A DNA stretch of 64,000 nt from Hydractinia symbiolongicarpus (lineage: Eukaryota; Cnidaria; Hydrozoa; Anthoathecata; Hydractiniidae): positions 27,782,501 through 27,846,500 of the forward strand of contig NC_079879.1 of assembly GCF_029227915.1 (NCBI RefSeq). The letters are read 5' to 3'. Below are positions 4,846-64,000 of the stretch, one piece after another; position 1 is the stretch's first letter; each line of letters opens with the position of its first letter. Below the pieces are notes generated by a model that worked only from the letters and a program-made list of their open reading frames with translations, searched no databases and was not told the DNA's origin. A program made the position numbers and the translations under genes.

Positions 4846-5130
4846 ATTGTGGTAGAGGTTTGTGGTAGAAGCTTGGGTTCAAACCTCCTCGAGTCATCCC
4901 AGAGACTATAAAAGTGTGAATCTATCCTTTCTGCTTAGCGTTCAGAATGATAATAAGATTGATATCTTAGGCGGTTGTCTAGTTGAGCGGTTGCTGTGCT
5001 TGCACGGCTTTTGTAGCTCAATTGGGAGCTTTAAATGCACTAGGACTCCCTTCGCAGGACCCTCGTTGATAGCAGTACCAATGGGAACTGAAGATGCTAT
5101 CCTGGGTAAATAATTTCAATAATAACAATA
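4846..5130 (+). mobile_element. SINE, copy 1 (plus strand)
   Basis: The left part holds a B-box-like GGGTTCAAACCTC (4876-4888), then a CTCGAGTCA-CCCA block, a TAGGCGGTTGTCT block and a TAGCTCA…TTAAATGC(A)CTAGGACTCCC block, and it ends in an AATAAT-type simple tail. The last three blocks recur in the same order on the minus strand at 10266-10562, so this is one dispersed family. The pol III-type box and simple tail point to a tRNA-derived SINE. The 5' limit is uncertain because box A is not clear in this copy. Overlapping short open frames here are incidental. Confidence 0.6.
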
Positions 5131-19200: not shown

Positions 19201-19712
19201 GTAGGAATGAGTGAAGTTGTTTTTGTTGTGAATTGTGGTAACACAGTAAGAATGAGTGAAGTTGTTTTGTTGTGAATAGTGGTAACACAGTAGGAATGAG
19301 TGAAGTTGTTTTGTTGTGAATAGTGATAACGCAGTAAGAATGAGTGAAGTTGTTTTGTTGTGAATAGTGATAACGCAGTAAGAATGAGTGAAGTTGTTTT
19401 GTTGTGAGTAGTGGTAACTCAGTAAGAATGAGTGAAGTTGCTTTGTTGTGAATAGTGGTAACACAGTAAGAATGAGTGAAGTTGTTTTGTTGTGAATAGT
19501 GGTAACACAGTAAGAATGAGTGAAGTTGTTTTGTTGTGAATAGTGGCAACACAGTAAGAATGAGTGAAGTTGTTTTGTTGTGAATAGTGGCAACACAGTA
19601 AGAATGAGTGAAGTTGTTTTGTTGTGAATAGTGGTAACACAGTAAGAATGAGTGAAGTTGTTTTGTTGTGAATAGTGGTAACACAGTAAGAATGAGTGAA
19701 GTTGTTTTGTTG
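16205..19712. repeat. 44-bp satellite array, about 79 units
   Basis: The unit contains GTGGTAACACAGTAAGAATG followed by AGTGAAGTTGTTTTGTTGTG and AATA (44 bp; a 45-bp variant has TTTTTG). The left edge (16205-16250) is degraded and the right edge is sharp at 19712. Variant positions mark higher-order structure. A five-unit block of 219 bp is repeated in tandem (GTGGAACACAG variant at 18490 and 18709). A longer block holding the GTTATCACAG and GACTTAAG variants recurs 926 bp apart (16637 and 17563; 16876 and 17802). Because 44 is not a multiple of 3 and the unit has no stop on the minus strand, all three minus frames stay open for hundreds of codons. I do not call these genes. Confidence 0.95.
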
Positions 19713-22066: not shown

Positions 22067-22903
22067 CTATACCCGTTTACAAACTTTCAATATTTCTCTT
22101 TTTACACCTTCACTGGACGCTTGCAGCAAGTCTACTTTATAATTTCCATGTTTTTCAATATAAGCAGTAAAATCATTCGTCCCTCCTCCGACGCCAAAAT
22201 AATATGTCTTCGCAGCAAACAACGCCATACCATCATGCTGTAACTGATCCTGAAGTATGCGCAAAAGTTTCGGGTAGTATTCTTTATTGTATATAGTTTC
22301 AGACGATAAGATTATGTCAAACTTTGGAAAATTGTTGTCAGAAAGAAAGCTGCTAACATTCTCCCAGTCCCCCGAAAGAAATGTGAGTTTATTTTTAACA
22401 TGCGATGGAGCGTTGAACTTTTGCATTGTGCAATCCACCGACGGGATTGTAAAATTCAAAACAACTTCCTTGTTATAATCCTGCCAGCAAATCTCTTGCG
22501 CTTCTAGGAAATATGTAAACAAACCCAGCAAGCCAGCCCCGCATCCAAGATCCAACACACGTTTACCTTTTAGCAGTTCTGCATTGTTGTTCAAATAAAT
22601 AAGTAAATCAAACGTACATTCCCATACTTTCAAACCACCTTCATATTCACCTGATTGAAGGTCAGAAGAGGAGAGACATTCTAGGTCTCCTTCTGACTGT
22701 ATTTCTTTGCTTACTTCATCGGGATCTATGTAATACATGGCTTTACCGTCGAGGGTGTATTCTTTGAAGGGATGTTTCCATTTGTTTGTAAAGTTCGGAT
22801 TAAATACGTGTCTCACAGCTTTTCTTTCGCTGGCATTTTTCAACTGCTTTATATTAGACATGGTAGTATCTGTTGTGGAGCCAAAGTTGAAGCGAAAATC
22901 CAT
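22067..22903 (-). CDS. METTL18: Histidine protein methyltransferase, METTL18 family
   Basis: A single 278-codon frame. METTL18 (yeast Hpm1) is an S-adenosylmethionine-dependent enzyme that methylates a histidine of ribosomal protein L3 (uL3) and so affects ribosome function. Visible family features are the N terminus MDFRFNF, the block YEGGLKVWECTFDL (87-100), the SAM-binding motif I VLDLGCGAGLLG (117-128), the SSETIYN motif (200-206) and YFGVGGG (235-241). Length is shorter than the human protein because the variable N-terminal region is compact. The start at 22903 is supported by the conserved N terminus. A strong 3' splice acceptor lies 33 nt upstream. The gene is in the same orientation as MBIP and CRCP, with 0.66 kb to MBIP. 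It appears intact. Confidence 0.93.
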   Translation of the reverse strand: MDFRFNFGSTTDTTMSNIKQLKNASERKAVRHVFNPNFTNKWKHPFKEYTLDGKAMYYIDPDEVSKEIQSEGDLECLSSSDLQSGEYEGGLKVWECTFDLLIYLNNNAELLKGKRVLDLGCGAGLLGLFTYFLEAQEICWQDYNKEVVLNFTIPSVDCTMQKFNAPSHVKNKLTFLSGDWENVSSFLSDNNFPKFDIILSSETIYNKEYYPKLLRILQDQLQHDGMALFAAKTYYFGVGGGTNDFTAYIEKHGNYKVDLLQASSEGVKREILKVCKRV

Positions 22904-22936
22904 CTTTTGAGAGAAAGTCCTGTTTACACTTGTTGA

Positions 22937-25801: not shown

Positions 25802-26176
25802 TCACGTTTTATCAGATTCTGGCAGAGGTAGTTTTTCTTCAATCAAATCTATTAATTTTTGCAACTCTTCCTCGGTCTTTAACCGTTCGTCCAGTTCCTC
25901 GATAATCAACTGCATCTCCACGATAGATGTTGGCCGCAAGTTGAGCAGTTGTAATTTCTCTGCTTTCGTGAAATCGTATGGTTTTAACGCTCTCATAAAG
26001 TCTTGAACAATTTTGTTGTCTTGGTAAAGGCAAGGAGTTTTTTCAAGATGCTTTATCGTTTCATAAGCTATCGTTGCCACGTTGGTGTTTTTATGTTCGA
26101 TCAGTTTTTCGTTTTCGAGCAGATGATATACTTCTGAGTTACTCAGCGTTGCAACATTTTCGTTCACCACTTCCAT
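25802..26176 (-). CDS. CRCP: RNA polymerase III subunit RPC9 / CRCP
   Basis: 124 codons, one exon. CRCP (yeast Rpc17) forms the stalk of RNA polymerase III with RPC8 and takes part in initiation at tRNA and 5S genes. The animal protein was also named CGRP-receptor component. Family features are the MEVVNEN…LSNSEVYHLL start, IAYETIKHLEKTPC, KPYDFTKAEKLQLLNLRP and VEMQLIIEELDERL. These line up with vertebrate CRCP over its whole conserved length; the acidic tail is shorter. The ATG at 26176 is preceded directly by TTGTTTAG, a splice acceptor. The gene lies in the same orientation as MBIP and METTL18, and a LINE begins only about 260 bp upstream. It appears intact. Confidence 0.92.
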   Translation of the reverse strand: MEVVNENVATLSNSEVYHLLENEKLIEHKNTNVATIAYETIKHLEKTPCLYQDNKIVQDFMRALKPYDFTKAEKLQLLNLRPTSIVEMQLIIEELDERLKTEEELQKLIDLIEEKLPLPESDKT

Positions 26177-26534: not shown

Positions 26535-29500
26535 TTAAATTTCTTTCAGTAAAAATAATTTTGTCTCTCTTTTAAATGTTATCAGCTTTTTAATCGAGCG
26601 AATGTCTTTAGGAAGTCGATTGAAAGACGTAGTTGTTACATCTTCGAAAGTGTTTTTGCGAAGTGATGTCTTTAATCGAATTTCGTCAGCATTTCGAAGA
26701 GTTCTTTTGTGAACAACAATTTCATTTTTCAAATACTTTGGCCAATTATTCTGATGAACACTTTTAAAGGCTGTGATCATCAAATGCCATTCTCGTCTTT
26801 GTTTAATAGGTAACCAACCTAAACGTGTTATATCTTCAGTATGGCTGTACTTATTCCATACAAAGCTGGCTGCACGTATCATCACTTTATGCAGCTTTCG
26901 AATTTGGATGGTTGTTAATGGAATATAAACAGTGTCGTTAAAGTCTAATTTTGACAAGACTAGCATTTCAGCTAATTGTTTTCGTAACTTAAATGGTGCC
27001 ATGCGTTTTAGTTTACGTAATATAGATAAGATGCCATGACAACACGATACTACACTCTGTACATGATCATTCCAACTTAGGTGTTCATCTAATTTAACAC
27101 CCAATACAGACCATGTTGGAACTCTTTCAATCTGGAAGTCATCCAGTTTGATATCAGTACAATCGAGGTCGTTGAGATTGTGTCGTTTTGACATTTGTGA
27201 TGTTGAAAACACCATTAACTTTGTTTTTTCCTTGTTCAGAACAAGATTGTTATTTGTAGACCATCTTTGAAGTTGACTTATATCTCCGTTTATTTGTTCC
27301 TTTGCCTTCGCAAGATTATTTAATTTTGTGCACGTAAACAAAGTGGTGTCGTCAGCATACTGTAACGTACTCGTTGTCAAATTCATTTCCAGGTCAGTGA
27401 CGTATAAATTGAAAATAACAGGGCCTAATATTGACCCTTGCGGCACACCAGATGTGACGTTACAAAATTCAGAGGTCTTATCATTAATTCGCACAATTTG
27501 TTTTCTGCCACACAAGTAACTCAAAATTAGTTCAACAAACTCTTTGGAAAAACCGATTTGGTTGAGTTTCCTCATTGTAGTTTCATATTGAACAGTATCA
27601 AAGGCTTTCGAAAAGTCAGCTAATACTACAAGACTGATTTCGTTTTTACTCATTGCTTCTTTGATATCCGTTCTACGTTTCATCAACAAAGTAGTCGAGG
27701 AGTGTCCTTTTCGGTACCCGGACATCTTTTCGGAATATAAAGATTTCTCATCGATAAAGATTATCATTTGTGTAAGGATAAGACGTTCAAATACTTTGGA
27801 TAAAATAGGAAGGATGGAGATCGGTCGTAGTTCTTTTATTGATGTAGGAACATTCACTTTTGGAATAGGTGCGACTCTTGCCACTTTCCATTGACACGGG
27901 AAGCATTTTTTCTCAATGCACGTATTTATAATATGTGTTAGAACAGAAGAAATTTCATTTGCTAGTAATTTAACATATTTCACTGGTATATCATCAAACC
28001 CAGTTGATATATCGTTACGTAGTCCTTTAAGTTCTTTAAGTACCTCCTCATACTTAACATGTCTGAGTTGAAACATTTTGGAAGTCGATGGTGGTAATGT
28101 TTGGGGTACTTCCTTTAAATCAATTTCAGATTTTGGAATTGATCCAGTAACTCGCTCAGCTGTTCCGGCAAAAAAAGTGTTTACACTATCAGCGTCAAAA
28201 TGAAGAGGCTTCGAAGGAGGATGTAAAATTCGATTGATAGTGTTCCACACTTCTTTCGAGTTTTTAGAACTAAGTGCTTTTCTATAAAAGGAAACTTTAG
28301 CTTTCTTGATCTTTTTCTTAACAGAGTTTTTAAGTTGTCGAAATTCGTTCCATATCATTTGATCGTTAGTTTCATGAGCAAGTTTTCGAAGTTTATTTCG
28401 CTTCGTTTGGTCACTTTTTATGTTTAAAGTATGAATCCATGGAGATGGTGGTCTTGTTATTTTTGTTCTTCTTAACGGGGCATGTCTATCAATGCAATCT
28501 TGCATGAACTTGTGAAGTATCTCCACTTTTTCTTCTGGATCATCTATAGCGTATATAACTGATATCGGTAGGTTCGAGAAATCCGACACAAAAGATTCCC
28601 TATCAAATTGCCTTTCATCTCTTATCATTTTATATCGAGGTTTAAACTTATCGTATTTAATGTTGATGATAGCGTAAGGTCCATCATGGTCACTAATAGT
28701 TTCGCATGGTAATACATCAGTATGTGCGATTTTGGTATTATTGTTAATTATCATATGATCGATCAATGTTGCGCTTAAAGGAGTCGTCCTGGTTGGCTTT
28801 GATACTATCTGTTTAAGGTTGAATGCAGATAAAATATTGTTGTACTGTCTTACTTGGCAACATTCTGGTTTGAGAAGATTTATGTTTATGTCCCCTGTTA
28901 TAAGTAGCAGGCCATCCCATGTTGTTTGGATATAAGTTATCAAATCTTCAAATTTAGTTAACCAGTCAGAAAAGGAGATGATTCTTTCCGATCGGTATAT
29001 GACCCCAAGAAGTAGTTTACTATGCTTGTTTCGGCCATCTACCTCGATCCATATATGCTCTAAATTTTCGTACATATCATTAATATCCTTTCGAATGCGA
29101 TATTTGATCAAACTGTTCACATAAATTCCAACACCCCCTCCTCGAATTTGGTCTCTATTCACATATTCCATTGAGTAACCAGGTATACGGACGTATTCCA
29201 ATAAATTAGCATTATTTTTTAGCCATGTTTCGGATAAGCAAACAATGTCGAATGGGTGGTCATCCAATAATACCAGTAAATCGTTAAAATTAGATGTCAT
29301 CGATTGTGTGTTTATGTGCAGTACTCTCAATTTTTGATAATGTTCATGCAATGCGTGTTGATGACTGCTGTATGTTGCACCTGAAATAGTTGATGAAATA
29401 GTTGAATTCAAATCATTCTCTCGCGCAAACGGCATTAATAAGTGTGTACAGTCGGTACATGTCCACTTTACCGGAATACAATTCATTATGGAATGTGTCA

Positions 29501-29651
29501 AGTTGGTATCGGCACATTTTGCATGAGTTCGATTAAAACACATTTCACAGGCGAGCTGCTTTTGATTTCGTCTGATAGTTGCTCTACATTTAATGCACTT
29601 AGTTGCTTGGGGTTTGGGCCCTGGGTTGGTTTCCACGTCGCCACTTTGCAA
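26535..29651 (-). CDS. LINE polyprotein: 2A-like motif, PHD-like finger, endonuclease, reverse transcriptase
   Basis: About 1038 uninterrupted codons. In order: a 2A-like SGDVETNPGP (residues 3-12); a Cys/His finger CxxC…CxxC…H..C…C..C (19-68) of PHD-like spacing; an apurinic-type endonuclease from about 107 (INTQS, SETW, GDININ, SDHDG); a reverse transcriptase with LRPIS, ADFSKAFD, GVPQGSILGP and the catalytic YADD (about 763); and a C-terminal tail with a WN-type pattern. The catalytic residues are intact, so the copy looks young. The frame has no ATG before the 2A motif. Its first codon is TTG, and an in-frame TAG lies 54 nt further upstream, with another frame carrying the hydrophobic leader. 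Either a 1-nt lesion separates leader and body, or translation starts differently. Confidence 0.88.
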   Translation of the reverse strand: MQSGDVETNPGPKPQATKCIKCRATIRRNQKQLACEMCFNRTHAKCADTNLTHSIMNCIPVKWTCTDCTHLLMPFARENDLNSTISSTISGATYSSHQHALHEHYQKLRVLHINTQSMTSNFNDLLVLLDDHPFDIVCLSETWLKNNANLLEYVRIPGYSMEYVNRDQIRGGGVGIYVNSLIKYRIRKDINDMYENLEHIWIEVDGRNKHSKLLLGVIYRSERIISFSDWLTKFEDLITYIQTTWDGLLLITGDININLLKPECCQVRQYNNILSAFNLKQIVSKPTRTTPLSATLIDHMIINNNTKIAHTDVLPCETISDHDGPYAIINIKYDKFKPRYKMIRDERQFDRESFVSDFSNLPISVIYAIDDPEEKVEILHKFMQDCIDRHAPLRRTKITRPPSPWIHTLNIKSDQTKRNKLRKLAHETNDQMIWNEFRQLKNSVKKKIKKAKVSFYRKALSSKNSKEVWNTINRILHPPSKPLHFDADSVNTFFAGTAERVTGSIPKSEIDLKEVPQTLPPSTSKMFQLRHVKYEEVLKELKGLRNDISTGFDDIPVKYVKLLANEISSVLTHIINTCIEKKCFPCQWKVARVAPIPKVNVPTSIKELRPISILPILSKVFERLILTQMIIFIDEKSLYSEKMSGYRKGHSSTTLLMKRRTDIKEAMSKNEISLVVLADFSKAFDTVQYETTMRKLNQIGFSKEFVELILSYLCGRKQIVRINDKTSEFCNVTSGVPQGSILGPVIFNLYVTDLEMNLTTSTLQYADDTTLFTCTKLNNLAKAKEQINGDISQLQRWSTNNNLVLNKEKTKLMVFSTSQMSKRHNLNDLDCTDIKLDDFQIERVPTWSVLGVKLDEHLSWNDHVQSVVSCCHGILSILRKLKRMAPFKLRKQLAEMLVLSKLDFNDTVYIPLTTIQIRKLHKVMIRAASFVWNKYSHTEDITRLGWLPIKQRREWHLMITAFKSVHQNNWPKYLKNEIVVHKRTLRNADEIRLKTSLRKNTFEDVTTTSFNRLPKDIRSIKKLITFKRETKLFLLKEI
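29616..29645 (-). other. 2A-like translational recoding motif
   Basis: Encodes SGDVETNPGP, matching the 2A consensus D(V/I)ExNPGP exactly. In picornaviruses and some LINEs this motif makes the ribosome skip the Gly-Pro bond, releasing the upstream product. 2A-like motifs at the N terminus of CR1/L2-type ORFs are established for sea urchin and other invertebrate LINEs. Activity also depends on the residues upstream, which here lie across a frame break. Confidence 0.8.
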
Positions 29652-29880
29652 AATAAAATTAAATGTAGCACACGTATTGTTATACTAGGAGACTCTTGCT
29701 TTACCTCTTTTAATAACGTAACTATAGCTTCTGTCACCTTTTACAATCGTTCCATTTATTTCAATGGTCTTAATGCTATCGTTAAAATCAATACATAAAG
29801 TAATTAGTGATGTTATTAATATTACGGCATAAGACATTGTGGTTACCATGGTGATATAGAGTGTTGATAAGAAGTTTTGC

Positions 29881-46453: not shown

Positions 46454-46700
46454 AATATAGAGCTAGGAATACTAGATGGACTAGATGAACCTTTTTAAGG
46501 TTGAGAGTAGAGATGCAGGATACCACTTCACTAAGATCAGTTGGAGACAGTAAAAGAGAAACAGGATTTCTATCTAACAAAATGTCAAAAATGTTTACGT
46601 GAAGGAGGAATTTTAGATTGAATAGAGTCAGCTATAGAGGAAAAACGGTCATAAAAAATATTAGAGACCACACAATGATCAGATACTATTACTTAGGTAT

Positions 46701-47813
46701 ATGATGAGAAATGTTTGCAGAATTGACAGAAATCATGCCTTTCCACACATTTCAAATGTTTTTCACGGAAGGACAGATGTCAGGTGTGAGCATCATCAGA
46801 TTGTTACCCAGCTATCACACCACAAGGTAGATAACACTAGGTTGAGGATAGCTAGTGTAAATGTTGGTACTCTGAGAGGTAGAGCAGGTGAAGTAGTTGA
46901 AATGTTAGAACGTAGATCTGTTGATATGTGTTGTGTTCAGGAAGTCAGGTGGAGAGGAGCTTCAGTGAGATTTGTGGAAGGTAGGAGGGCAAGGTATAAG
47001 CTTTTTTGGATTGGTAATAATGATGGATATGGAGGAGTTGGCATATTCGTTGCAGAGAAGTGGGTAGAAAAAGTAATAGATGTTATGCATGTTAATAGTC
47101 GTATTATAGTGATAAAGTTTTTGATAGGTAATAGGATTGTCACTTTTCTGTCAGTTTATGCTCCACAGTGTGGACTCAGTAAGGAAGATAAAGATAAGTT
47201 TTATGATGAGTTAACAGCAGTCACATCAAAGTTTGGAGACACTGAACTTGTCATGGTGGGCGGCGACTTTAATGGTCATGTTGGGAAGTCATCTGAAGGT
47301 TATAGAGGTGTGCATGGAGGCTATGGATTTGGGAGCAGAAATAAGGAAAGGGAAAGATTGCTTGAGTTTGGAATGGCAACAGACATGGTGGTTTGCAACA
47401 CATCATTCAGTAAGAGACAGAGTAGGCTGATAACATATGAGTCAGGTGGCTGTAAGACACAGATAGATTACTTCCTGGTTAGAAAGTCAGACAAGAAAGT
47501 GGTGAAGGATGTGAAAGTTATATCGGGGAAAGAGTGTGTTTCCCAGCATATAGGTTTGCTGGTTTCTGATATTATCTTGAAGAGTGTTAAAGAAGCCAAG
47601 GGAAAGTACAGCCCCCGTCGTAAAGTCTGGAAGCTGAAGGAAGAGATTGTAGCAAGACAATTTAGTGGAGATAGTGACAATGTTGAAAGTACTTGGACTA
47701 CTTTGAAGAATTGTCTTCTAGAAGCTTCTGATGATACCTGTGGGTGGACGAAAGGACCAGCTGTAGACATAGACAGACCTGGTGGTGGAATAATGAGGTT
47801 GACCAGTGTATAA
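46701..47813 (+). pseudogene. RTE endonuclease region
   Basis: An apurinic/apyrimidinic-type endonuclease: LRIASVNVGTLRGR, MCCVQEVRW (catalytic Glu), GNNDGYGGVGIFV, VSVYAP-like block, GGDFNGHVG (Asp/Asn) and TQIDYFLVR. The C-terminal 'SDHRLLV' block reads QHIGLLV, so the key Ser-Asp-His is altered. A 1-nt change near 47760 shifts the frame: the following WWWNNEVDQCIKEKRKLW block is read in another frame. Confidence 0.8.
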
Positions 47814-48109
47814 AGGAAAAGAGGAAACTTTGGAAAGAGTGGAAGTCAGGTGGTAGTAAAAATATTTGCTTAGAAGCTAAGAGTCGTGCTCGTACATCAG
47901 TGTATAAGGAAAAATCAGAAGCAGAGAGAAACAGATTTGCAGATGTGTTAAGAAGGGAAGACCAGCGCAATGAGGTATTCAAGATAGCAAAGCAAATGAA
48001 GAAGACTAATCAAGATCTTGTAGGTGAGAAGTGTATACGTAATGAAGGTGTTTTGGCTAGCACAGAGGAGGAGAAAAGGGTAGCTTGGAAGAATTATTAT
48101 CAGAGGTAG
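47744..48109 (+). pseudogene. RTE linker region
   Basis: It continues the endonuclease part with WWWNNEVDQCIKEKRKLW and a long basic helix-rich segment, up to NYYQR followed by TAG. A second TAG follows 7 codons later, and coding similarity then resumes with NLSDDDVVEGPA in the same frame. Confidence 0.75.
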
Positions 48110-48142
48110 CTTAACACTGAGTTTGATTAGGATGAGGATAAT

Positions 48143-49115
48143 TTGTCTGATGATGATGTTGTAGAAGGGCCAGCTATGCAGATCAAGACAGAATGGGTAG
48201 TGGAGGCTGTTAGGAAATTGAAGATTGGCAAGGCTGTAGGAGTATCAGGTATTGTTGCAGAGATGGTAAAAGCATCTGGATATATTGGAGTTAAGCTTAT
48301 TACAAGTCTTGCTAATCAGATTATAAAGGATGGTGCTATTCCGAGTGAGTGGCAGTCGAGTGTAATAGTGAATTGGGTCAAGGGCAAGTGTGATGCATTA
48401 GAAAGAGAGTGTAATAGTGAATTGTTTCAAGGAAATGGGTGTTGCATTAGAAAGATGTAACTATAGAGTTTTGAAGTTGGTTGATCAAGTAATGAAAGTT
48501 ATTGCAAAAGCGATCGATAAGTTACTTAGAGAAAGAATTGATATAGATAAGATGCAATTTGGTTTTGTTCCAGGGTGTGGTACTACAGATGCAATATTTT
48601 CACTCAGACAGCTTCAGCAAAAGTATTATTTTGCCTTTGTAGATTTAGAGAAAGCTTTTGATAGAGTGCCACGTAAAGTTATTTTGTGGGCTCTGAGAAA
48701 ATTAGGTGTGGATGAGTGGCTAGTTACGATGGTACAGTCTATGTACAGCAATGCTAGAAGTCGTGTCAGGATAAACGATTTACTTAGTGATGAATTTAGT
48801 GTAAATGTTGGTGTACATCAGGGTTCTGTACTTAGTCCTTTGTTGTTTATTCTAGTCTTAGAAGCGCTGTCGATGGAGTTCAGAACAGGTTGTCCATGGG
48901 AGTTATTGTATGCAGATGATTTGGTTCTCATAGCAGAGTCGATGGAAGAATTAGTTGAAAAGTTTGAGAAGTGGAAGAAAAGACTAGAAGAGAAAGGGCT
49001 GAAGGTAAACACAGCAAAGTCTAAAGTCATGATAAGTAGCATTGCAGCCAAGTGTGACCTTGTAGTTGGAAAGTGGCCTTGTGGAGTTTGCAGGAGAGGG
49101 GTTGGTAGTAACTAA
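48143..49115 (+). pseudogene. RTE reverse transcriptase region
   Basis: RT blocks: VRKLKIGKAVGVSGI, a broken 'VIVN..KGKGD', MQFGFVPGCGTTDAIF, FAFVDLEKAFDRVP, HQGSVLSPLLFI and catalytic LYADDLVL. A 49-bp tandem duplication (48358-48406 and 48407-48456) has shifted the frame just before block 3, so the two halves are in different frames. Near 49111 a stop interrupts the Cys-rich part (CGVCRRGVGSN), and similarity continues as IFCHTCK up to the first nested insertion. Confidence 0.82.
48358..48456 (+). repeat. 49-bp tandem duplication inside the LINE
   Basis: GAGTGTAATAGTGAATTG…GCATTAGAAAG is present twice, 49 bp apart, with a few differences. 49 is not a multiple of 3, and the duplication accounts for the frame change between the two halves of the RT. 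Confidence 0.8.
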
Positions 49116-50201: not shown

Positions 50202-52698
50202 TAGTAAATACATTTATTTGTTAAGTTAGATTACAAAAAATAAACTTTTTAAAAAAAAAAAAAAAATTGTCTAGAGTATAAATAATGCAATAATCTAACC
50301 TAACAGGAGAGCTAGTCAAATAGATAAATCTAATCAAGAACTAGCCCCCCTGTCAACAAAAAAAAAAAAATAAGATAGACATCTATATATATACGTAGTA
50401 GAAATAAATTAGACAAAACAAACAAAAAAAAACACAAGAAAAACAAACAAAAAATCAATAAATGAAATAAGATAAACAAAAATTAAACAAAATTAAATAA
50501 AAAAAATATAGCTATATATATACAAAAAATGAATAACTAATTAAACTTAAATTTAAATTTAAGTGTAGCAAATAAATTATTAGTTTATATATATTCCTTA
50601 TAAGTATTTACTTAACAATTGATTTGTAATTATTTTTTTGCACTGGTTTTTGGATAGTGATGACAGCTTTTTATCACTGTGTTGGTTATTAATTGTATTC
50701 CAGCAACGGATTGATTGATATTTTATACTATAAATTCCATACCAAGTGGTACTAACATTTGGAAGTATTAGGTTATTGTTTGATGTATTTCTAGTATTAT
50801 GGGTATGAGTATTTGTAACCAGAGTGAAAATGCCTTGCAGAGGTTTAGGCAAATTTTTATGATAATGATCATACGCAAATAAAAAGTCTTTCAGCTTAAT
50901 TGTGTCAGGAAAAGTAAGTATTTTGGATTTATTAAATAATAGAGAAGTAGGGCTGTTTGCAGGTTTGAAGTTCATAATTTTAATTGCTTTATTTTGAAGG
51001 GAGATAATCCTATTCAGGTAGGTGCTTTTGTTATGTCCCCATATTTGACATCCATAAGTTAGATGTGATGAGAAGATAGCATGATATATATTAGTTAAAA
51101 TATTATAGGAAACATAGTGTCTTATTTTAGATAATATCCCAATGGATCTGGATAGTTTTACTTTAAGATTATCTATGTGTATATGCCATTTTAAATGTTT
51201 GTCCAGAGTGATCCCTAAATATTTAATAGATTCAGAAGGTAAAATTTTATGGCCATTGATTTTTATTTTGATATCATAGTCAATAGATTTGTTTGGATGG
51301 GTAAAGAGGATGATTTCTGTTTTACTAGCATTTAGGGATATTTTGTTGGCCCGGAGCCAGTTGCAAAGGAATCTTAGATCAAGGTTTAATTGCTTCCTTA
51401 TTGATTTTAAATTATCACTAATTGTCAGTAAGTTAGTATCATCTGCAAAATGGTGGACTGTTGAGTATTTAATTGCATTGTTTAGATCATTAATATAAAT
51501 TAGAAATAGTAAAGGTCCAAGTACAGACCCTTGGGGTACTCCTATTGTTATATTTTGGACATTTGAATCAAAACCATTTATTGAAACATATTGTTTTCTG
51601 TTACTAAGGTATGATCTGAACCAGGAGTTAGATAGTCCTCTAATTCCATAATTTTCAAGTTTTTTTAAAAGGATAGTATGATCAACAGTGTCAAATGCTT
51701 TTTGCAGGTCAATGAATGTTCCACATGCAAAGTTGTTGAAATCTAAAGTTTCTCTTATTTTCTCTGTAATACTGAAGAGTGCATTATTAGTGGAATGATT
51801 TTGTCGAAAACCAAATTGTAGATCATAAATACAATTGTGATAGTCTAAAAAATTGTATAATCTGGAGTGCATGAGTTTTTCAAAAATTTTATTAATATTA
51901 GAGAGGAGTGATATTGGGCGGTAATTGTTACATTCTAGACTAGATCCTTTATTTTTATATATAGGTATAATTTTTGCAATTTTTAAGTTATCTGGATAGA
52001 TGCCAGTCGAAAATGATAGATTTATTATCTCGCATAGGGGTGTTGATACATTGAATTTAATAAGTTTAAAAATATTGCTGGGTATACTAAAAGGTCCGTT
52101 TGTTTTATTTTCATTTAAAGAAGATATCAGTGGTATTATTTCATTTTCAGTAGTAGGATTGATAAAAAAAGAATTGTGATTTGCGTCATTAAGGTAATTA
52201 TGGAATGGTTTATTAGAAGGTGAAATTTTATTTTGAAGTTTTACTCCTACTGTGGAAAAATAGTTATTAAAGCAGTTAGCAATATCAACAGGATTATTGT
52301 TAATTTTATTGTTAATTTTTAGGCTAGTAGGAACAGTGGTTTTCATTTTGGATATGCTATATAATAATGGTTTTGATTCCGTCCCAAGTTTTTCTAATGT
52401 TATTCGAGTTTTCAAAAAAATATTTTTGATAATGTTGTTTTTTACTTTTTCTGATCAAATCAACAATTAAATTTCTGTATTGTTTATAATTATTGTGTAA
52501 CATATTTTTATAATTATCATTCTTTCTGTAATTTATGAATTTTTTCAGTAATTTATCTCTTATAGTGATAGATTTACATATTCCTTTTGTAATCCATGGT
52601 TTAGATTGTTGCTTGTATTGTTTTTTTGACATCTTCTTTAAAGGTATATGCTTATCTAATAATTGGTTTATTGCATGATTAAATTGAAGTGAGACGTC
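50202..52698 (-). mobile_element. CR1-like LINE, 5' truncated, inserted in the RTE-like LINE
   Basis: Flanked by AGTAAAG on both sides (50195-50201 and 52699-52705), consistent with target-primed insertion. The 3' end (low-coordinate side) has an AT-rich 3'UTR. The 5' end is truncated just upstream of a HAINQLLDKHIPLKK block, so the endonuclease is missing. Codons upstream of that point in the same open frame are antisense RTE sequence, not part of this element. Confidence 0.8.
50598..52415 (-). CDS. CR1-like LINE reverse transcriptase
   Basis: An open frame of about 600 codons: IAKIIPIYKNKGS, NNYRPISLL, LQFGFRQNHST, FACGTFIDLQKAFDTVDH, IGVPQGSVLGPLLF, catalytic HHFADDTNLL (FADD in place of YADD) and KYLGITLDKHLKW, then the C-terminal tail. 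The upstream portion of the protein (52357-52690, SKKQYKQQSKPWITKGI…) is in another frame, with the break near 52390. RT residues look intact, so truncation and one frameshift are the main damage. FADD is the normal variant in many CR1-like elements. Confidence 0.82.
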   Translation of the reverse strand: MKTRITLEKLGTESKPLLYSISKMKTTVPTSLKINNKINNNPVDIANCFNNYFSTVGVKLQNKISPSNKPFHNYLNDANHNSFFINPTTENEIIPLISSLNENKTNGPFSIPSNIFKLIKFNVSTPLCEIINLSFSTGIYPDNLKIAKIIPIYKNKGSSLECNNYRPISLLSNINKIFEKLMHSRLYNFLDYHNCIYDLQFGFRQNHSTNNALFSITEKIRETLDFNNFACGTFIDLQKAFDTVDHTILLKKLENYGIRGLSNSWFRSYLSNRKQYVSINGFDSNVQNITIGVPQGSVLGPLLFLIYINDLNNAIKYSTVHHFADDTNLLTISDNLKSIRKQLNLDLRFLCNWLRANKISLNASKTEIILFTHPNKSIDYDIKIKINGHKILPSESIKYLGITLDKHLKWHIHIDNLKVKLSRSIGILSKIRHYVSYNILTNIYHAIFSSHLTYGCQIWGHNKSTYLNRIISLQNKAIKIMNFKPANSPTSLLFNKSKILTFPDTIKLKDFLFAYDHYHKNLPKPLQGIFTLVTNTHTHNTRNTSNNNLILPNVSTTWYGIYSIKYQSIRCWNTINNQHSDKKLSSLSKNQCKKIITNQLLSKYL

Positions 52699-52705
52699 AG
52701 TAAAG

Positions 52706-52860
52706 CATGAAGATCTAGACCGTTTGAGAGACAGAAAGAGTTTAGATGAGCTAAGAAGCAGGCTAGGTATCCATAGCATTAAAGATGTAATCCAGATGAG
52801 AAGATTGAGTTGGTTGGGACTTGAAAAGAATGGATAATTTGGCAAATGGGCAACAATAAT
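52706..52860 (+). pseudogene. RTE C-terminal end
   Basis: It resumes with KHEDLDRL and continues DRKSLDELRSRLGIHSIKDV, then LSWLGL and, after a frame change, KRMDNLANG. A short deletion between DRL and RDRKS removes the usual 'RMVRWMCGVSL' part. The end of similarity is near 52855. Confidence 0.72.
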
Positions 52861-53620
52861 TTGGGTGGATGATAAATGCATTATCAGTAACTAAAATAAG
52901 TATGTTCTTAGATAATTAAAGCCTTTTCTGTGAGAGTTTGACCGTGAAACGTCCGTGTTTTCCCTCAATCAAAAGTTGTACCATGCGCGCACGTGGACAT
53001 TTCGACTGGGAGAATAGCTGCAAAATAGGGGACCTATGACCGTTCTGCAACCGTCCTGCAATATATAAAAATATATTGAGAATACACACATACGAACACA
53101 TGAAAAAAAAGGGATGCAGTTAGCTAGGTAAAACAAAGAGACGAAAAAAGAGCAAAATAAACTTTCTTTTTTTGCCTTCCTTCGTGACCGCGGTACCATT
53201 ATTGATAGAAGCGTACCAAGTTGATCAACAAAGCAAAGAGACATGGTTATTGTCGTTCCCCGATGGCAGAAAAATAAATGACGACCTGGGACTTAAGATT
53301 GTGGGGGAGCATGGTCAAAAAGCACAAAAGACAAACGTTAATTGAAGTCTTTATACTTTTTTTTCAAGAATACCTTGGTTTAAAACATTCATATCGTGTG
53401 ACTTTCTATTCTTCGTCCACAGGGTTTGTTGTCTGATGTCCAAAGCCGCTGACGCTTACTTGACGGCTAGAACTCCTGGGGGCGTAGTTGGTTACTTTCT
53501 TTAATGCGTATAACACCGTTCATCGTCCAATCATAGTTAATAAATGGAAGAGATATTTTCGAATCAAAAGCGCTGTCTTGGTGTAATGTTTTTTTGTTTT
53601 TTTTGTAGAGTTCTGTATGC
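52861..53620. other. Non-coding stretch
   Basis: No gene is supported. Short open frames on the minus strand (52916-53244) overlap in different frames. Confidence 0.4.
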
Positions 53621-59986: not shown

Positions 59987-59997
59987 TATATATAAAA
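59987..59997 (+). promoter_or_regulatory. TATA-like box before the first gene of the cluster
   Basis: TATATATAAAA lies 32 nt upstream of the ATG at 60029. It is a good match to a TATA box, though in AT-rich DNA such matches are common. Confidence 0.4.
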
Positions 59998-60028
59998 TGG
60001 TACTCTGTTACTGGTGCTCTGTAGAAAT

Positions 60029-60268
60029 ATGCGACAAAGTCAGGTGCCCCATGAGATACAACCCCCCACAGGTGAGTACAAAACACAGGTAAGTACAAAC
60101 ACATTCTGCCTGGCTTACACGGAAGGCCGAAAGTTATATGATAGTGCGTATGAAATATCGCTGTGGCTGTTGAAAAGGCGCTACAAGGGAATTCCTGCTT
60201 CGGATTGGAGACACCTCAAAAGATTTCGGGGTGACCTGACGCAAAAAGAATTCCTGGCATTGGCCTGA
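60029..60268 (+). CDS. Small basic protein, first gene of the compact cluster
   Basis: 79 codons from the first ATG (the frame continues upstream only through a non-ATG codon). The C-terminal half is helical and charged: YEISLWLLKRRYKGIPASDW…FRGDLTQKEFLALA. I do not recognise it. It is the leftmost of four plus-strand genes in 1 kb and is followed by hairpin 1 after 4 nt. The GTGAGT and GTAAGT near 60070 look like splice donors, so processing of the transcript is possible. Confidence 0.45.
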   Translation: MRQSQVPHEIQPPTGEYKTQVSTNTFCLAYTEGRKLYDSAYEISLWLLKRRYKGIPASDWRHLKRFRGDLTQKEFLALA

Positions 60269-60272
60269 AACG

Positions 60273-60299
60273 TTATCTTACAACATGGTTGCAAGATAA
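60273..60299 (+). other. Intergenic hairpin 1
   Basis: TTATCTTACAA / TTGCAAGATAA around a CATGG loop: 11-bp arms with one mismatch. It lies 4 nt after one stop codon and 14 nt before the next ATG, and is followed by an AATAA run that merges into ATG. Confidence 0.75.
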
Positions 60300-60313
60300 T
60301 ACTACTATAATAA

Positions 60314-60595
60314 ATGAGTTGTTTCAAGACGCAGGACATGTGCAACAGGGCCATTGAAAAGGAACCCTGGCTGCTGAAGTATGTGCCGGACTGGCTCAAG
60401 ACGCGAGACATGTGTAACAAAGTTGTTGAAAAAGATCCCTGGCTGCTCATGTATATACCGGACCGGTTCAAAACGCAGGACATGTGTAATGAAGTTGTTA
60501 AAAAGAATCCACGCATGTTCGAATATATACCGATTCAGTTCAAAACGCAGGAAATGTGCAATAAAGCTGTTGAAAAGGATCTCGAGGTGGTTTAA
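60314..60595 (+). CDS. DUF4116-type repeat protein
   Basis: 93 codons made of four tandem repeats of about 24 residues: (F/L)KT(Q/R)(D/E)MCN..(V/I)EK(D/E)PWLL.Y(V/I)PD. This is the DUF4116 repeat, known from bacteria, large DNA viruses and mobile elements; its function is unknown. Larger relatives carry many more repeats, so this is a short form. The last repeat is cut off after KAVEKDL. The ATG is the first codon, and the first repeat starts at residue 4. The frame is intact. Hairpins of the same sequence precede both this gene and the next. Confidence 0.75.
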   Translation: MSCFKTQDMCNRAIEKEPWLLKYVPDWLKTRDMCNKVVEKDPWLLMYIPDRFKTQDMCNEVVKKNPRMFEYIPIQFKTQEMCNKAVEKDLEVV

Positions 60596-60635
60596 TATGT
60601 GTAACGTGACATGCGCGAGAACATGTGAAATAGGT

Positions 60636-60660
60636 TATCTTACAACATGGTTGTAAGATA
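60636..60660 (+). other. Intergenic hairpin 2
   Basis: A second, better copy of hairpin 1: TATCTTACAA / TTGTAAGATA, perfect 10-bp arms with the same CATGG loop, 12 nt before the next ATG. The tail TATAATAAATG is shared with hairpin 1, so a module of hairpin plus start region has been duplicated or conserved. Confidence 0.78.
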
Positions 60661-60672
60661 TTAGTATAATAA

Positions 60673-60879
60673 ATGTGCATTTACTGTCAATCAAATTTCA
60701 ATAGACTTAGAACTTTAGTATTCATGACATTTATGGCCGGTACTGGTCTCTCTTTGCCACTTATAGCTTTAGCATGCGTGAAAGAACCAGAGAGGGAGAG
60801 GTATATTAAGCAGAGGATTAAAGACCTATGGGATCAGCTTAATGCCTTAGAAGATGATCGTTCTTGTAATTGTAAATGA
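60673..60879 (+). CDS. Small membrane protein
   Basis: 68 codons. A CxxC near the N terminus (MCIYC) is followed by a hydrophobic segment of about 22 residues (LVFMTFMAGTGLSLPLIALAC) and a charged helix (ERERYIKQRIKDLWDQLNALEDD). Predicted one transmembrane helix, with the charged tail as a possible coiled coil. I do not recognise it. The next gene starts 1 nt after its stop. Confidence 0.5.
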   Translation: MCIYCQSNFNRLRTLVFMTFMAGTGLSLPLIALACVKEPERERYIKQRIKDLWDQLNALEDDRSCNCK

Positions 60880-60880
60880 A

Positions 60881-61030
60881 ATGGAGCATTGTAACGACTG
60901 TGAAAGGGTACCCGATGCATATGACAGGTGCACCTGCGGACGTAGGCTCGTGGTAAGCGGTAAAATGTTATGCTGGTACTGCTACCGTGAATACACCACA
61001 TATAATGGGGTGGCTGCGTATGTACAATAA
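60881..61030 (+). CDS. Cys-rich microprotein (zinc-ribbon-like)
   Basis: 49 codons. The N-terminal part carries C-N-D-C, C-T-C-G and C-W-Y-C, that is, a CxxC … CxC … CxxC arrangement within 33 residues, with aromatic and basic residues between. Such spacing suggests a zinc ribbon or knuckle. The start follows the previous stop by a single base (TGA-A-ATG), as in tightly packed viral or bacterial gene sets. It is intact. The function is unknown; DNA/RNA binding or protein docking are guesses. Confidence 0.5.
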   Translation: MEHCNDCERVPDAYDRCTCGRRLVVSGKMLCWYCYREYTTYNGVAAYVQ

Positions 61031-61129
61031 CATGCAATTCTCTGCAATCGTTCGAAATTCACAATAAACAAGATGCTACAATTTGAGAATGGCTTGTCAA
61101 ACCTAAATTATTCTACTAATTTGCTGCCA

Positions 61130-61608
61130 CTTTTACAGACATTAACGATATCAATGTGGACTACCTGACGGTTTCAGATCCCATTCCCGCCAACGGGGGG
61201 TAAGGATCAACGGTACATTTTAGGATACCAGACACGGGACCTTGTGGTAGCCCTGACAGTAAAATCACCTAAAATCTGGTCCCTGCATGGAGTGACCCGG
61301 CACAACGCCAACGCAGTACCAGCAATGAGTCTCGATTTCGAAGAATCTGGTCCAAAATCGAGGAATTGATTTCTGAGCAATTGATGACAGAGCCTGTAAA
61401 AAAAGACCGTTACGTGAACGCTAAACTCAAGTATTACAAGGATGCAATCACAACAAAATTCTATGGTACGCCGGTACCCTATGATGAGCCCTGCCAAGTT
61501 GGCTATTTCATCAGTATATGTGCAAGGCAAAAACTACTACCCTCAGGTACACATTACAGAATGCCGGTATAAGGACTTTAAAAAGAATGGCTGCTGAGTG
61601 GGGATTAA
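61130..61608 (+). pseudogene. Decayed conserved element protein
   Basis: Plus-strand coding texture in three frames: DINVDYLTVSDPI, then SKIEELISE, then TEPVKKDRYVNAKLKYYKDA and TKFYGTPVPYDE in an open piece to 61572, and finally SVYVQGKNYYPQVHI in another frame, ending near 61608. I have seen the 'MTEPVKKD.Y.NAKLKYWKD' type in cnidarian repetitive ORFs, but its function is unknown. Stops near 61200 and a frame change near 61490 break it. Confidence 0.5.
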
Positions 61609-61614
61609 AAAACC

Positions 61615-61649
61615 ATATATTTTATAGGTCTTGTACCTATAAAATATAT
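61615..61649. terminator. Perfect 15-bp hairpin between convergent genes
   Basis: ATATATTTTATAGGT / ACCTATAAAATATAT around a 5-nt loop. It lies 7 nt after the plus-strand coding region and 51 nt from the end of the minus-strand gene, so it could serve as a two-way 3'-end signal. In giant viruses and some virophages AT-rich palindromes mark transcript 3' ends. I infer a similar role by analogy only. Confidence 0.6.
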
Positions 61650-61699
61650 ACCAAATTAGGGTCTATACTCAGGTGGAGACTCTAGGTACCGCTTACATA

Positions 61700-62250
61700 C
61701 TACGCAGGTCGAAGGCTTTTTAAAATCTCATTCTGCATCTCTTTCCTGCCCTCATCACGGCCCATCGCAACTAACTGGGCACGCTCCTGTCCGTTGATGC
61801 TGTTCACGACACGGTTAAATCGCTGCCGCATCTGTTCCTTTAACAACATACATATTTCCTTTCCACGGCTAATCAGGCTGTACTCGTAGTCACTAATCAC
61901 ACCGTTTTCCATTGCCTTTGAGATCACATCAACAATGGAGTTCAGTTTACTTTCCGCGAGTAGCCTTATGTCCTCATGCTTCTTACTCTTAACCCCAAGC
62001 CTTTTCGAAGCGTTTCGGAGACCTGCCTGACCTATCCTGGCTGCAATCGTGAGCTCCCCCCATAGCTATAGCTAAAGGGACTCCCAGGCCCGACGCTATG
62101 GCTCCGATACCGAGTCCGGCGTAATCACACTTATGCCAAGCAGACCATGATCACAAAAGCGTACCCAGGTGCCATGCATCTTGAATTTCTTGGCGAACTT
62201 GTCCCGCTCCTTGGTCTCATTCCGCAGGTATTTTTCAATATCATCGATTT
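61700..62250 (-). pseudogene. Conserved element protein with hydrophobic middle
   Basis: Read on the minus strand: IDDIEKYLRNETKERDKFAKKF, then a hydrophobic Gly/Ala/Ile-rich middle (about 62110-62040), then KKHEDIRLLAESKLNSIVD and ISKAMENGVISDYEYSLI, ending at 61700. The pattern 'K..KH..I..LA..KLN.I…S.A..D..IS..E' is one I associate with repetitive cnidarian ORFs, probably a structural or membrane-linked protein. At least one frameshift in the hydrophobic middle and a stop at the junction with the preceding gene (near 62249) show decay, unless the stop separates two genes. Confidence 0.5.
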
Positions 62251-62984
62251 ATTTGAGTCTGTAGATCTGGCTCTCCTCCTGCATATCAGCGCCCTGCGCA
62301 GGCGCACTCAGTAAATTTGGGTACAGTTTGGCTACATCGCTCATCTTTATTCTATGAGAATGCACATGGTTAGGCCGGTTCTTTTCATGATGGTAGACGT
62401 CCGTTAACATGAATTCGAGACGGTCCGTAGAGCCCTTAAGCGGAAGGTAAATAGAGGTGTCAAAATCCCAAGTCAGCATGTCCCCCCAAGCGTTTAGCTC
62501 CTTAGTGGGAAGCAAGGCCAAAATTTTTTTACCATTAAGTAGGCAGTCGTCTTCATCCAACTGCGGACAGACGAGTCTCCGTTCTGTTATAGGCATCATG
62601 GTCACCGCTCGTGTAGTACTTTTTAGCGGGGTCGTATGGTAGACCAAGGAGCTCCTGTAGGGGTCTGCTAATAACCACCGTATACCCGTCACTGACACGG
62701 AGCCTGCAGAGTCTAATTTTCAAGACAAGAAGCTTAATCTTATCTTCCGCCTGGCTAATGACAATAGTCGCGATATCCTCTATTCTGTACAAGCAATTCA
62801 TAATCTTGATACAAGTCACCCTTTGGTCAGGCCCAACCCTACGAATGGTAAAGTCGTTGTTGCTGTACAGATTAAGCCATGCAGGTCTAATACTGATGGA
62901 TTTCAGGGCTATTCTGCTATCCTGTCCAAGATAATCCTCGAATATAGTAGGCTTTTCGATATCGGTGATGTTCAGTTGTTTCAT
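62249..62984 (-). pseudogene. Unknown element protein, frameshifted
   Basis: It starts at ATG 62984 (MKQLNITDIEKPTIFEDYLG), and the first ~110 codons read well: ISIRPAWLNLYSNNDFTIRR…LRVSDGYTVVISRPLQELL. Near 62640 the frame shifts, and the rest continues in another frame: RLVCPQLDEDDCLL, KILALLPTKELNAWGDMLTW, FMLTDVYHHEK…, ending before the stop at 62249. The β-strand-rich texture would suit a structural protein, but I cannot name a family. The start codon lies inside hairpin 4. An intact relative would be about 240 residues. Confidence 0.5.
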
Positions 62985-63008
62985 CCCTTTCTTCTAAGAA
63001 AGGATGAA
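62980..63008. other. Hairpin overlapping a start codon
   Basis: TTCATCC-C-TTTCTT / AAGAAAGGATGAA: 13-bp arms with one bulged C and a 2-nt loop. The ATG of the minus-strand gene (62984-62982) is inside one arm. In RNA of either strand this would put the start codon or the preceding 3' end in a stem. Confidence 0.65.
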
Positions 63009-63056
63009 CATATACTCATACAACCCCAAGGCAAACTACAAAAGTAACAGGGGAGA

Positions 63057-63535
63057 ATGGCCACTTGGTATTACAAATTTGGAGCACCAGGATCTCTACG
63101 TGTCCACGGAGTCCCATATTTCTGTGGTCTTTCCCAAGTTTACAAAGTATGCCATCAAGGTCCCAACAACCTACCTTGATGACCCCGTTCAATTGGGGTA
63201 GAAAGGGCAAGCGCTGGACTATTGGAACATTCAGCAACAACATTTTAATAGCACCCGCCAATGCAATTATTGGCATCCGGCTTGATTTAAATAACAAACC
63301 TATTGTGAGGCATGCCGCACCTCCCATACATACTATACCACCTACACCTCCAAGGCATACTATCGGACACTTGGCAGATGCCATATCACCCTCCTAAGCA
63401 TGCTACACTTATTACACCTCCCATACATACTCCCGATCATACCATACAGGCTATACCATCTATACTTCCTAGGCCTACTACATCGCCTCCCATACCCGAA
63501 CAACCACAAAATCAACACGAGGATCCAAGACTGTA
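63057..63535 (+). pseudogene. Proline-rich element protein, frameshifted
   Basis: Plus-strand pieces in order: FPKFTKYAIKVPTTYLDD (about 63127-63180), KGKRWTIGTFSNNILIAPAN and IIGIRLDLNNKPIV (63200-63305), then a Pro/His/Ile/Thr-rich tail with PPIHT repeats, ending QNQHEDPRL at 63535. Pieces sit in different frames, with changes near 63180 and 63390. Unknown function; the tail resembles surface or linker proteins. Confidence 0.45.
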
Positions 63536-63589
63536 ATGATCATAACAGGGGTGGGGATCATCATTGCCTACACCTGGCTTAAAAAATAG
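63536..63589 (+). CDS. 17-residue hydrophobic peptide, TAATG-coupled
   Basis: MIITGVGIIIAYTWLKK; the ATG overlaps the stop of the preceding frame (TAATG). A single hydrophobic helix followed by lysines resembles small viral membrane peptides. It is too short to be sure it is a gene. Confidence 0.25.
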   Translation: MIITGVGIIIAYTWLKK

Positions 63590-63591
63590 GT

Positions 63592-63792
63592 CTATTTCCT
63601 GATATATAGCACGACAAGGCCGGCTACCGCCACAACGGCCATATACAGGTGTTTTGCAGCATATCCAACGACTGTTGCAACTACCCTCAGGAGGAAGGAG
63701 ACTACGGTACCCATGACTCCTGGTAATGCGATACCCGCCTTACCTGCCAGATATTTCAGGAAGTTTCCGAGCCTTTCAAGTTGTTTCTCCAT
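63592..63792 (-). CDS. Membrane protein with Gly/Ala-rich N-terminal region
   Basis: 66 codons from ATG 63792: an amphipathic start (MEKQLERLGNFLKYLAGKAG) and two hydrophobic segments (GVMGTVVSFLLRVVATVVGY; HLYMAVVAVAGLVVLYI). The frame stays open about 30 codons upstream through a GGGGAAAGPAGG-type low-complexity stretch to a TGA near 63885, so the real protein may be longer. It is convergent with the 17-residue peptide, with stop codons 2 nt apart. I associate this Gly/Ala-rich-plus-hydrophobic layout with virion-linked membrane proteins of Polinton-like elements, but that is only an analogy. Confidence 0.45.
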   Translation of the reverse strand: MEKQLERLGNFLKYLAGKAGIALPGVMGTVVSFLLRVVATVVGYAAKHLYMAVVAVAGLVVLYIRK

Positions 63793-63864
63793 GAACCCTT
63801 TTCCAGCCCCATCAGCGGCACTTCCTCCTGCAGGACCTGCCGCGGCACCTCCTCCCCCCTTAAC

Positions 63865-63985
63865 GGCTATAAATATGTTGCTTTTGTATCATCTCCGATT
63901 CCTCGTCGGTCTCCTTTAAATCAATCCGTTTTTCAAGGTCGCCTTTGCCTCTTTTATCTCTTTATCAAGGCTGTCTTAATTCCAC
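63865..63985 (-). pseudogene. Broken upstream part of the membrane-protein gene
   Basis: The minus strand reads EIKEAKATLKN in one frame and then DLKETDEESEMIQKQ in another, a charged helical segment just upstream of the Gly/Ala-rich stretch. It probably belonged to the same protein, or to the end of its neighbour. The gene set continues past the window edge. Confidence 0.35.
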
Positions 63986-64000
63986 TGGCCCCCATCTCTT

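What the first reader, a model, noticed from the sequence alone, without database searches (positions are those of the whole stretch)
59987..64000. Compact, hairpin-punctuated gene cluster: a virus-like or Polinton-like element of unknown class
In 4 kb there are nine or more small genes or gene relics on both strands. Gaps are 1-50 nt, with one TAATG overlap and convergent pairs, unlike the sparse surroundings. They include a DUF4116 repeat protein, a Cys-rich microprotein, membrane proteins and a proline-rich protein. The base composition is more GC-rich than the flanks. Several genes are broken, so this copy is dead, but the layout is that of a DNA virus or a self-replicating transposon. None of its hallmark genes (polymerase B, integrase, capsid) is in view, and I cannot name the class.
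Basis: partly seen in the sequence, partly recalled or inferred. Interest (0 to 1): 0.88.

Follow-up and report, generated by a model that had tools for sequence, protein, structure and literature searches.

The report
Hydroid Polinton virus punctuated by hairpins
This stretch is a decayed copy of a virus-like jumping element (a Polinton) in the genome of a hydroid, and in many of its relatives there a gene end is marked by a hairpin whose letters change while its pairing is kept, which hints at an unusual way of ending messages.

Summary
The cluster is real and its class can be named: a decayed copy of a Polinton (Maverick) in Hydractinia symbiolongicarpus. A capsid hallmark is in view: 62984-62399(-) encodes a penton. 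Its intact metagenomic relative P0121 models, at low confidence, as a jelly-roll best matched by mavirus, Sputnik and adenovirus pentons. The next gene, 62344-61700(-), is 73% identical to a predicted Hydractinia protein with 152 reported genomic matches. Right of the window the copy continues into capsid-like, integrase-like and ATPase-like frames; the integrase of the neighbouring copy hits rve at 1.2e-9.

In 43 of 50 copies a hairpin lies just after the 62344-61700 gene, against 4 of 300 control windows. Two main, unrelated stem sequences occur, each in its own subfamily, with paired changes inside each. A standard poly(A) signal follows that gene in only 3 of 50 copies. I infer that these hairpins mark transcript ends, working like the mimivirus 'hairpin rule'; no RNA was seen. 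New variant of a known kind.

The parts
59998..60268 (+). first gene trace, Cys-rich start and 84-aa frame, frameshifted; no family match
60273..60299 (+). hairpin: 12-position stem with one mismatch, loop 3, then AATAAATG
   Evidence: fold z -2.17
60314..60595 (+). DUF4116 repeat gene (four 72-nt repeats)
   Evidence: Pfam PF13475 7.2e-22; repeats; found in 22 of 49 other copies, opposite strand to gene B
60636..60660 (+). hairpin: 11-bp perfect stem, loop 3, then AATAAATG
   Evidence: fold z -3.06
60673..60879 (+). small protein with one hydrophobic segment
   Evidence: hydropathy 1.9; 19 of 49 other copies
60882..61030 (+). Cys-rich microprotein (the open frame reaches back to 60854)
   Evidence: 38 of 49 other copies; no Pfam family over its cut-off
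61120..61597 (+). broken gene convergent with gene B; function unknown
   Evidence: pieces in 24 and 26 of 49 other copies; no Pfam family
61615..61649 (.). hairpin between the convergent gene ends: 15-bp perfect stem, loop 5
   Evidence: hairpin at this junction in 43 of 50 copies
61700..62344 (-). gene B: relative of Hydractinia protein LOC130656758 (P0122); broken by a stop and an out-of-frame stretch
   Evidence: 73% identity over 228 columns; genome matches
62399..62984 (-). penton (single jelly-roll vertex protein), frameshifted
   Evidence: 30% and 56% to residues 1-131 and 145-205 of P0121; P0121 model matches pentons
62980..63008 (.). near-perfect palindrome holding both divergent start codons
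   Evidence: RNA fold z -3.84; hairpin of score 9 or more in the matching stretch of 15 of 50 copies
63004..63533 (+). broken gene with proline-rich tail, divergent from the penton
   Evidence: first part found in 39 of 49 other copies
63536..63589 (+). 17-codon hydrophobic frame, start overlapping the previous stop (TAATG)
63592..63888 (-). Gly-rich membrane protein, two hydrophobic segments, convergent with the previous frame
   Evidence: hydropathy 1.94 and 1.89; 65% over 52 aa in the next copy

Best explanation
The stretch is part of a decayed endogenous Polinton (Maverick), a family present in many copies in Hydractinia symbiolongicarpus. Intact relatives would presumably copy and insert themselves with their own polymerase and integrase and could build particles with a penton and a major capsid protein. 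Gene order is conserved: DUF4116, a membrane protein, a Cys-rich protein and a convergent gene on one strand; gene B and the penton on the other; then a proline-rich gene divergent from the penton. Hairpins stand at junctions. Shown: the homology, the copy number, the conserved order, and a hairpin kept at the gene B 3' junction by pairing rather than by sequence. Inferred: that hairpin, between convergent genes, ends transcripts, in place of a host poly(A) signal on the gene B strand; the palindromes that hold divergent start codons act as shared 5' control sites.
Confidence: 0.85

Rival explanations
1. The hairpins are DNA-level signals (sites for a dimeric binding protein, cruciforms, or replication or packaging marks), not RNA 3'-end signals.
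For: Palindromes also stand where two genes start (62980-63008; other copies), where a transcript end is not expected. Stems are AT-rich and work alike on both strands.
Against: The best conserved hairpin lies between two gene ends and none of score 10 lies in gene B. A protein-binding site would be expected to keep its letters, but two unrelated stem classes occur.
Confidence: 0.3
2. A virophage, polinton-like virus or adintovirus rather than a classical Polinton.
For: Penton matches mavirus and Sputnik best. The classes share penton, capsid, ATPase and often integrase and polymerase (established knowledge).
Against: Animal host, very many dispersed copies and an rve integrase fit Polinton/Maverick; adintoviruses, defined by PolB and Hexon sequence (PMC11071296), overlap with this and were not separated here.
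Confidence: 0.2
3. Inverted repeats left by an inserted element or by inheritance from few ancestors, without function.
For: Related copies share some stems letter for letter (six, five and four copies identical); the two classes follow subfamilies; L021 looks like an insertion.
Against: Same place in 43 of 50 copies against 4 of 300 controls, and paired changes inside both classes.
Confidence: 0.07
4. Host gene cluster or chance open frames.
For: Some small frames have no known relative outside these copies.
Against: Capsid homology, integrase next door, copy number and conserved order.
Confidence: 0.01

Closest known systems
Polinton / Maverick elements
   Same: Penton (PX) homologue, rve integrase, A32-like ATPase frame, capsid-like frame, many dispersed copies in an animal genome; the defining gene set was read in PMC4028283 (Findings, part 1 of 2)
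   Different: Hairpins conserved at a gene junction and a DUF4116 accessory gene; the words hairpin, palindrom and stem-loop do not occur in the main text of a paper on vertebrate Mavericks (PMC8097293, word search only)
Mavirus and other virophages
   Same: Best solved match of the penton relative
   Different: Integrated family in an animal genome; no giant-virus partner was seen or sought
Mimiviridae 'hairpin rule' of mRNA 3' ends
   Same: Hairpin-forming palindrome after the gene, not conserved in sequence (PMC4402537, passages read)
   Different: Other virus group and host; no viral RNase III or poly(A) polymerase was looked for; no transcript evidence
Adintoviruses
   Same: Animal elements with penton, PolB and integrase (PMC11071296, section 16 read)
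   Different: Membership rests on Hexon and PolB sequence, not tested here

Membership tests
Polinton / Maverick | penton (PX) with single jelly-roll | tested here: met
   model confidence low, match pattern consistent
Polinton / Maverick | rve-type integrase | tested here: met
   Pfam rve 1.2e-9 in the neighbouring copy; 69% relative in pieces right of the window's copy; the two of those pieces sent alone gave no rve hit
Polinton / Maverick | FtsK/A32-type packaging ATPase | tested here: inconclusive
   Pox_A32 3.5e-4 and 1.2e-3, 20.5 and 18.8 bits against cut-off 22.8
Polinton / Maverick | protein-primed DNA polymerase B | tested here: inconclusive
   DNA_pol_B_2 0.0046 at L015 4460-5185, below cut-off; no PDB match for two other pieces; genome search unanswered
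Polinton / Maverick | double jelly-roll major capsid protein | tested here: inconclusive
   frames conserved in both copies (72%), no Pfam family and no significant PDB match; the name is recalled
Polinton / Maverick | adenovirus-type protease | not tested
   not sought
Polinton / Maverick | terminal inverted repeats, target duplication, 15-20 kb length | not tested
   ends not mapped
Adintovirus | Hexon and PolB of the adintovirus type | not tested
   no reference sequences at hand
Mimivirus-type hairpin rule | hairpin after the gene, kept by pairing and not by sequence | tested here: met
   for the gene B junction only; two main stem classes
Mimivirus-type hairpin rule | hairpin replaces the eukaryotic poly(A) signal | tested here: inconclusive
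   gene B strand 3 of 50, opposite strand 22 of 50
Mimivirus-type hairpin rule | polyadenylation inside the hairpin; viral RNase III-like enzyme | not testable with these tools
   no transcripts at hand; the enzyme was not sought

The most novel reading that the evidence does not exclude
An animal Polinton family makes its mRNA 3' ends at structure-defined hairpins instead of sequence-defined host poly(A) signals, a virus-style punctuation described for giant viruses, and uses palindromes that contain both start codons to drive divergent gene pairs.
Probability: 0.28. Interest if true: 0.78.

Novelty: new variant of a known kind. Interest (0 to 1): 0.55.

Why it matters
Whether animal Polintons still act as viruses, and where in the cell their genes would be read, is open. 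A gene-end signal kept by pairing over much divergence suggests that selection acted on the elements' own transcripts or DNA between insertions. It gives a directly testable link to the hairpin-ended transcripts of giant viruses, and a mark that does not depend on sequence for finding Polinton gene ends in animal genomes.

Tried and rejected
IMG/VR: eight scans. The scans with single proteins, which reach close relatives only, found no relative of the penton, gene B or the membrane protein; one hairpin sequence gave no match. DUF4116 led to L001, by its neighbours (terminase- and portal-like, recalled) a tailed phage, and to L002; so DUF4116 says nothing about class. Tblastn of the phage collection found nothing. 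Apart from DUF4116 no window frame of the element reached 0.001 in Pfam or PHROGs among the pieces sent. The model of gene B's relative was too poor to use (pLDDT 37.5). A guess that the convergent gene at 61120-61597 is a single-strand-binding protein came from memory only and is dropped. Rfam: no match in the window. The script stopped with an error after its open-frame counts; its other half was run again. Papers: no held paper joins Hydractinia, genome and Polinton; three join Hydractinia and Maverick (passages of two seen). DUF4116 occurs in two papers, neither on Polintons by its listing (passages of one). A search for Polinton, hairpin, intergenic, transcription termination (at least three of four) listed 15 of 580; one of the 15 holds the word Polinton, and it was not read. 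The words hairpin and palindrom do not occur in the main texts of six papers on Mavericks, virophages and polinton-like viruses; stem-loop occurs once, for histone 3'UTR genes (word searches). That is no proof of absence from print.

Selection: one search used 50 copies: 8 loci returned, the window's copy (L012), the copy in L013, and 40 more picked by me from the list, mostly full-length matches of 60-80% identity. Control windows were six of 150 nt per copy. The start-junction stretch tested there was 200 nt long. One search left out the L013 copy (49 used). In one search the window's copy was left out (49 others). Searches used 30 of the 31 unique hairpins of score 9 or more; L021 was dropped as a class of its own.

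Full report
What is there. The region 59998-64000 is GC-richer (0.450 against 0.338) and richer in open frames than chance. Nine main gene traces lie on both strands. DUF4116 is certain.

Which host. Gene B's relative P0122 is a predicted protein of Hydractinia symbiolongicarpus, a hydrozoan. It is encoded at 100% identity in the window's own assembly, 480.9 Mb in 76 contigs. The window is C5:27782501-27846500. A related hydrozoan, Podocoryna americana, has Maverick (0.75% of the genome) and hobo-Activator as its top two DNA transposon groups (PMC13119343, passages read).

Beyond the window. L013 starts at window position 64001. At L013 1068-1661 lies a frame 71% identical to one in L014, by position and recall the major capsid protein. 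At L013 2343-3192 lie pieces of the integrase whose relative L014 1565-2452 hits rve (1.2e-9); the two pieces sent alone gave no rve hit. At L013 4022-4342(-) lies a Bro-N frame (1.6e-6) and at 4367-4948(-) an ATPase-like frame (Pox_A32 1.2e-3, below cut-off), whose relative in L014 (63%) stands at the same place after the integrase. So the window's copy very likely runs on through capsid-like, integrase-like and ATPase-like genes to about L013 4950. From L013 5086 a second copy repeats at least DUF4116, the convergent gene, gene B, penton and membrane protein in the same order and leads into the capsid-like frame, integrase and ATPase of L014. A polymerase B match further on is below cut-off (L015). 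Where copies begin and end was not mapped.

Copies. 152 gene B matches were reported, with 150 of 1746 first-look candidates scored, so this is a lower bound; by my count by eye about 70 have no stop inside. DUF4116 gave 134 matches, also a lower bound and some of them repeats of one gene; the same search rang in 0 of 14 control genomes. In 49 other copies the penton N-part was found in 45, the proline-rich gene in 39, the Cys-rich gene in 38, the convergent gene's two pieces in 24 and 26, DUF4116 in 22 and the 60673 protein in 19, always on the expected strand. The window's copy is well decayed: its gene B is 73-78% identical to P0122 and has stops.

Hairpins. In the window three hairpins stand at gene junctions (60273-60299, 60636-60660, 61615-61649), and a palindrome at 62980-63008 holds the divergent start codons of the penton and proline-rich genes. 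In other copies the junction after gene B was tested against six control windows each: score 9 or more in 43 of 50 copies against 4 of 300 controls; score 10 or more in 41 against 1. Of the 40 copies fetched only after the idea arose, 34 have it. The start-junction palindrome reached score 9 in 15 of 50. The 31 unique hairpins after gene B fall in classes of 17, 13 and 1. The two large classes follow gene B subfamilies: stems of the window's type in copies about 66-100% identical to P0122, the other in copies at about 59-66%. The single one, L021, resembles L013 3220-3242 and may be an insertion, as a stem of the common type follows about 150 nt on. Within the two classes, pairs change on both sides: 16 cells against a shuffled mean of 6.6, and 7 against 1.7, with none of 500 shuffles as high; slid controls fall to 26-39% and 29-63% paired against 90% and 93%. 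Other measures are weaker (pairs changed on both sides in A5: 18 of 500 shuffles as high; pair types: 267 and 52 of 500). Choice of pairing hairpins and shared descent inflate these counts, so the position test is the stronger one. No hairpin of score 10 fell inside gene B in 49 copies, and 40 such hairpins fell within 100 nt after it. The 60273/60636 type recurs in other copies with changed letters. In L013 and L014, 11 hairpins were found; by eye five stand after gene B, at the penton start, beside the membrane gene's end, after the frame before the integrase, and at the ATPase-like frame's start; six lie elsewhere or inside frames.

Function. AATAAA or ATTAAA within 150 nt after gene B's stop occurs in 3 of 50 copies, less than the 15% expected; on the opposite strand in 22 of 50. 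So the hairpin is the most constant mark after gene B, while the facing gene may use a host-type signal. The closest known practice is the mimivirus hairpin rule, where transcripts are polyadenylated at hairpin-forming palindromes not conserved in sequence (PMC4402537, passages). I think a role in ending transcripts the most likely one (about 0.45), a DNA-level or promoter role second. It works like the hairpin rule in anatomy; membership in that mechanism is not shown.

Novelty. Polintons in cnidarians are known (Hydra in PMC4028283, part 1 of the Findings section). Conserved junction hairpins in Polintons did not appear in the searches and the word searches of main texts named under Tried and rejected; that is a limited check. 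I rate it a new variant of a known kind.

Noticed in passing
window 16237-19712: Tandem array of about 79 copies of a 44-bp unit, 94% matching, with strong GC skew.
   Followed up: no
window 26538-29684 (-): 1049-aa open frame of a non-LTR reverse transcriptase type whose start holds a GDVETNPGP motif like a 2A peptide (identity of motif and enzyme recalled).
   Followed up: no
window 46665-49112 and 50601-52890: Two further reverse-transcriptase-like elements, in pieces (recalled).
   Followed up: no
window 22070-22936 (-) and 25805-26176 (-): Host genes: a lysine-methyltransferase-like protein (Methyltransf_16 5.4e-12) and an RNA_pol_Rpb4 domain protein (1.2e-21).
   Followed up: partly
L003 and L004 (C9:15805036 and C9:15807549): Two gene B copies at 100% and 99.5% identity to P0122 only 2.5 kb apart, which looks like a recent local duplication.
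   Followed up: no
L013 4022-4342 (-): Bro-N domain frame between the integrase-like and ATPase-like frames of the window's copy (1.6e-6).
   Followed up: no
L001: Viral contig, by its neighbours a tailed phage (recalled), with several DUF4116 repeat genes next to terminase- and portal-like genes.
   Followed up: no
L013 3220-3242 and L021 1696-1724: Similar hairpins that may be ends of another small inserted element.
   Followed up: no
starts of genes in several copies: TATAATAAATG recurs at apparent gene starts, with or without a hairpin before it, perhaps a start or promoter motif.
   Followed up: partly
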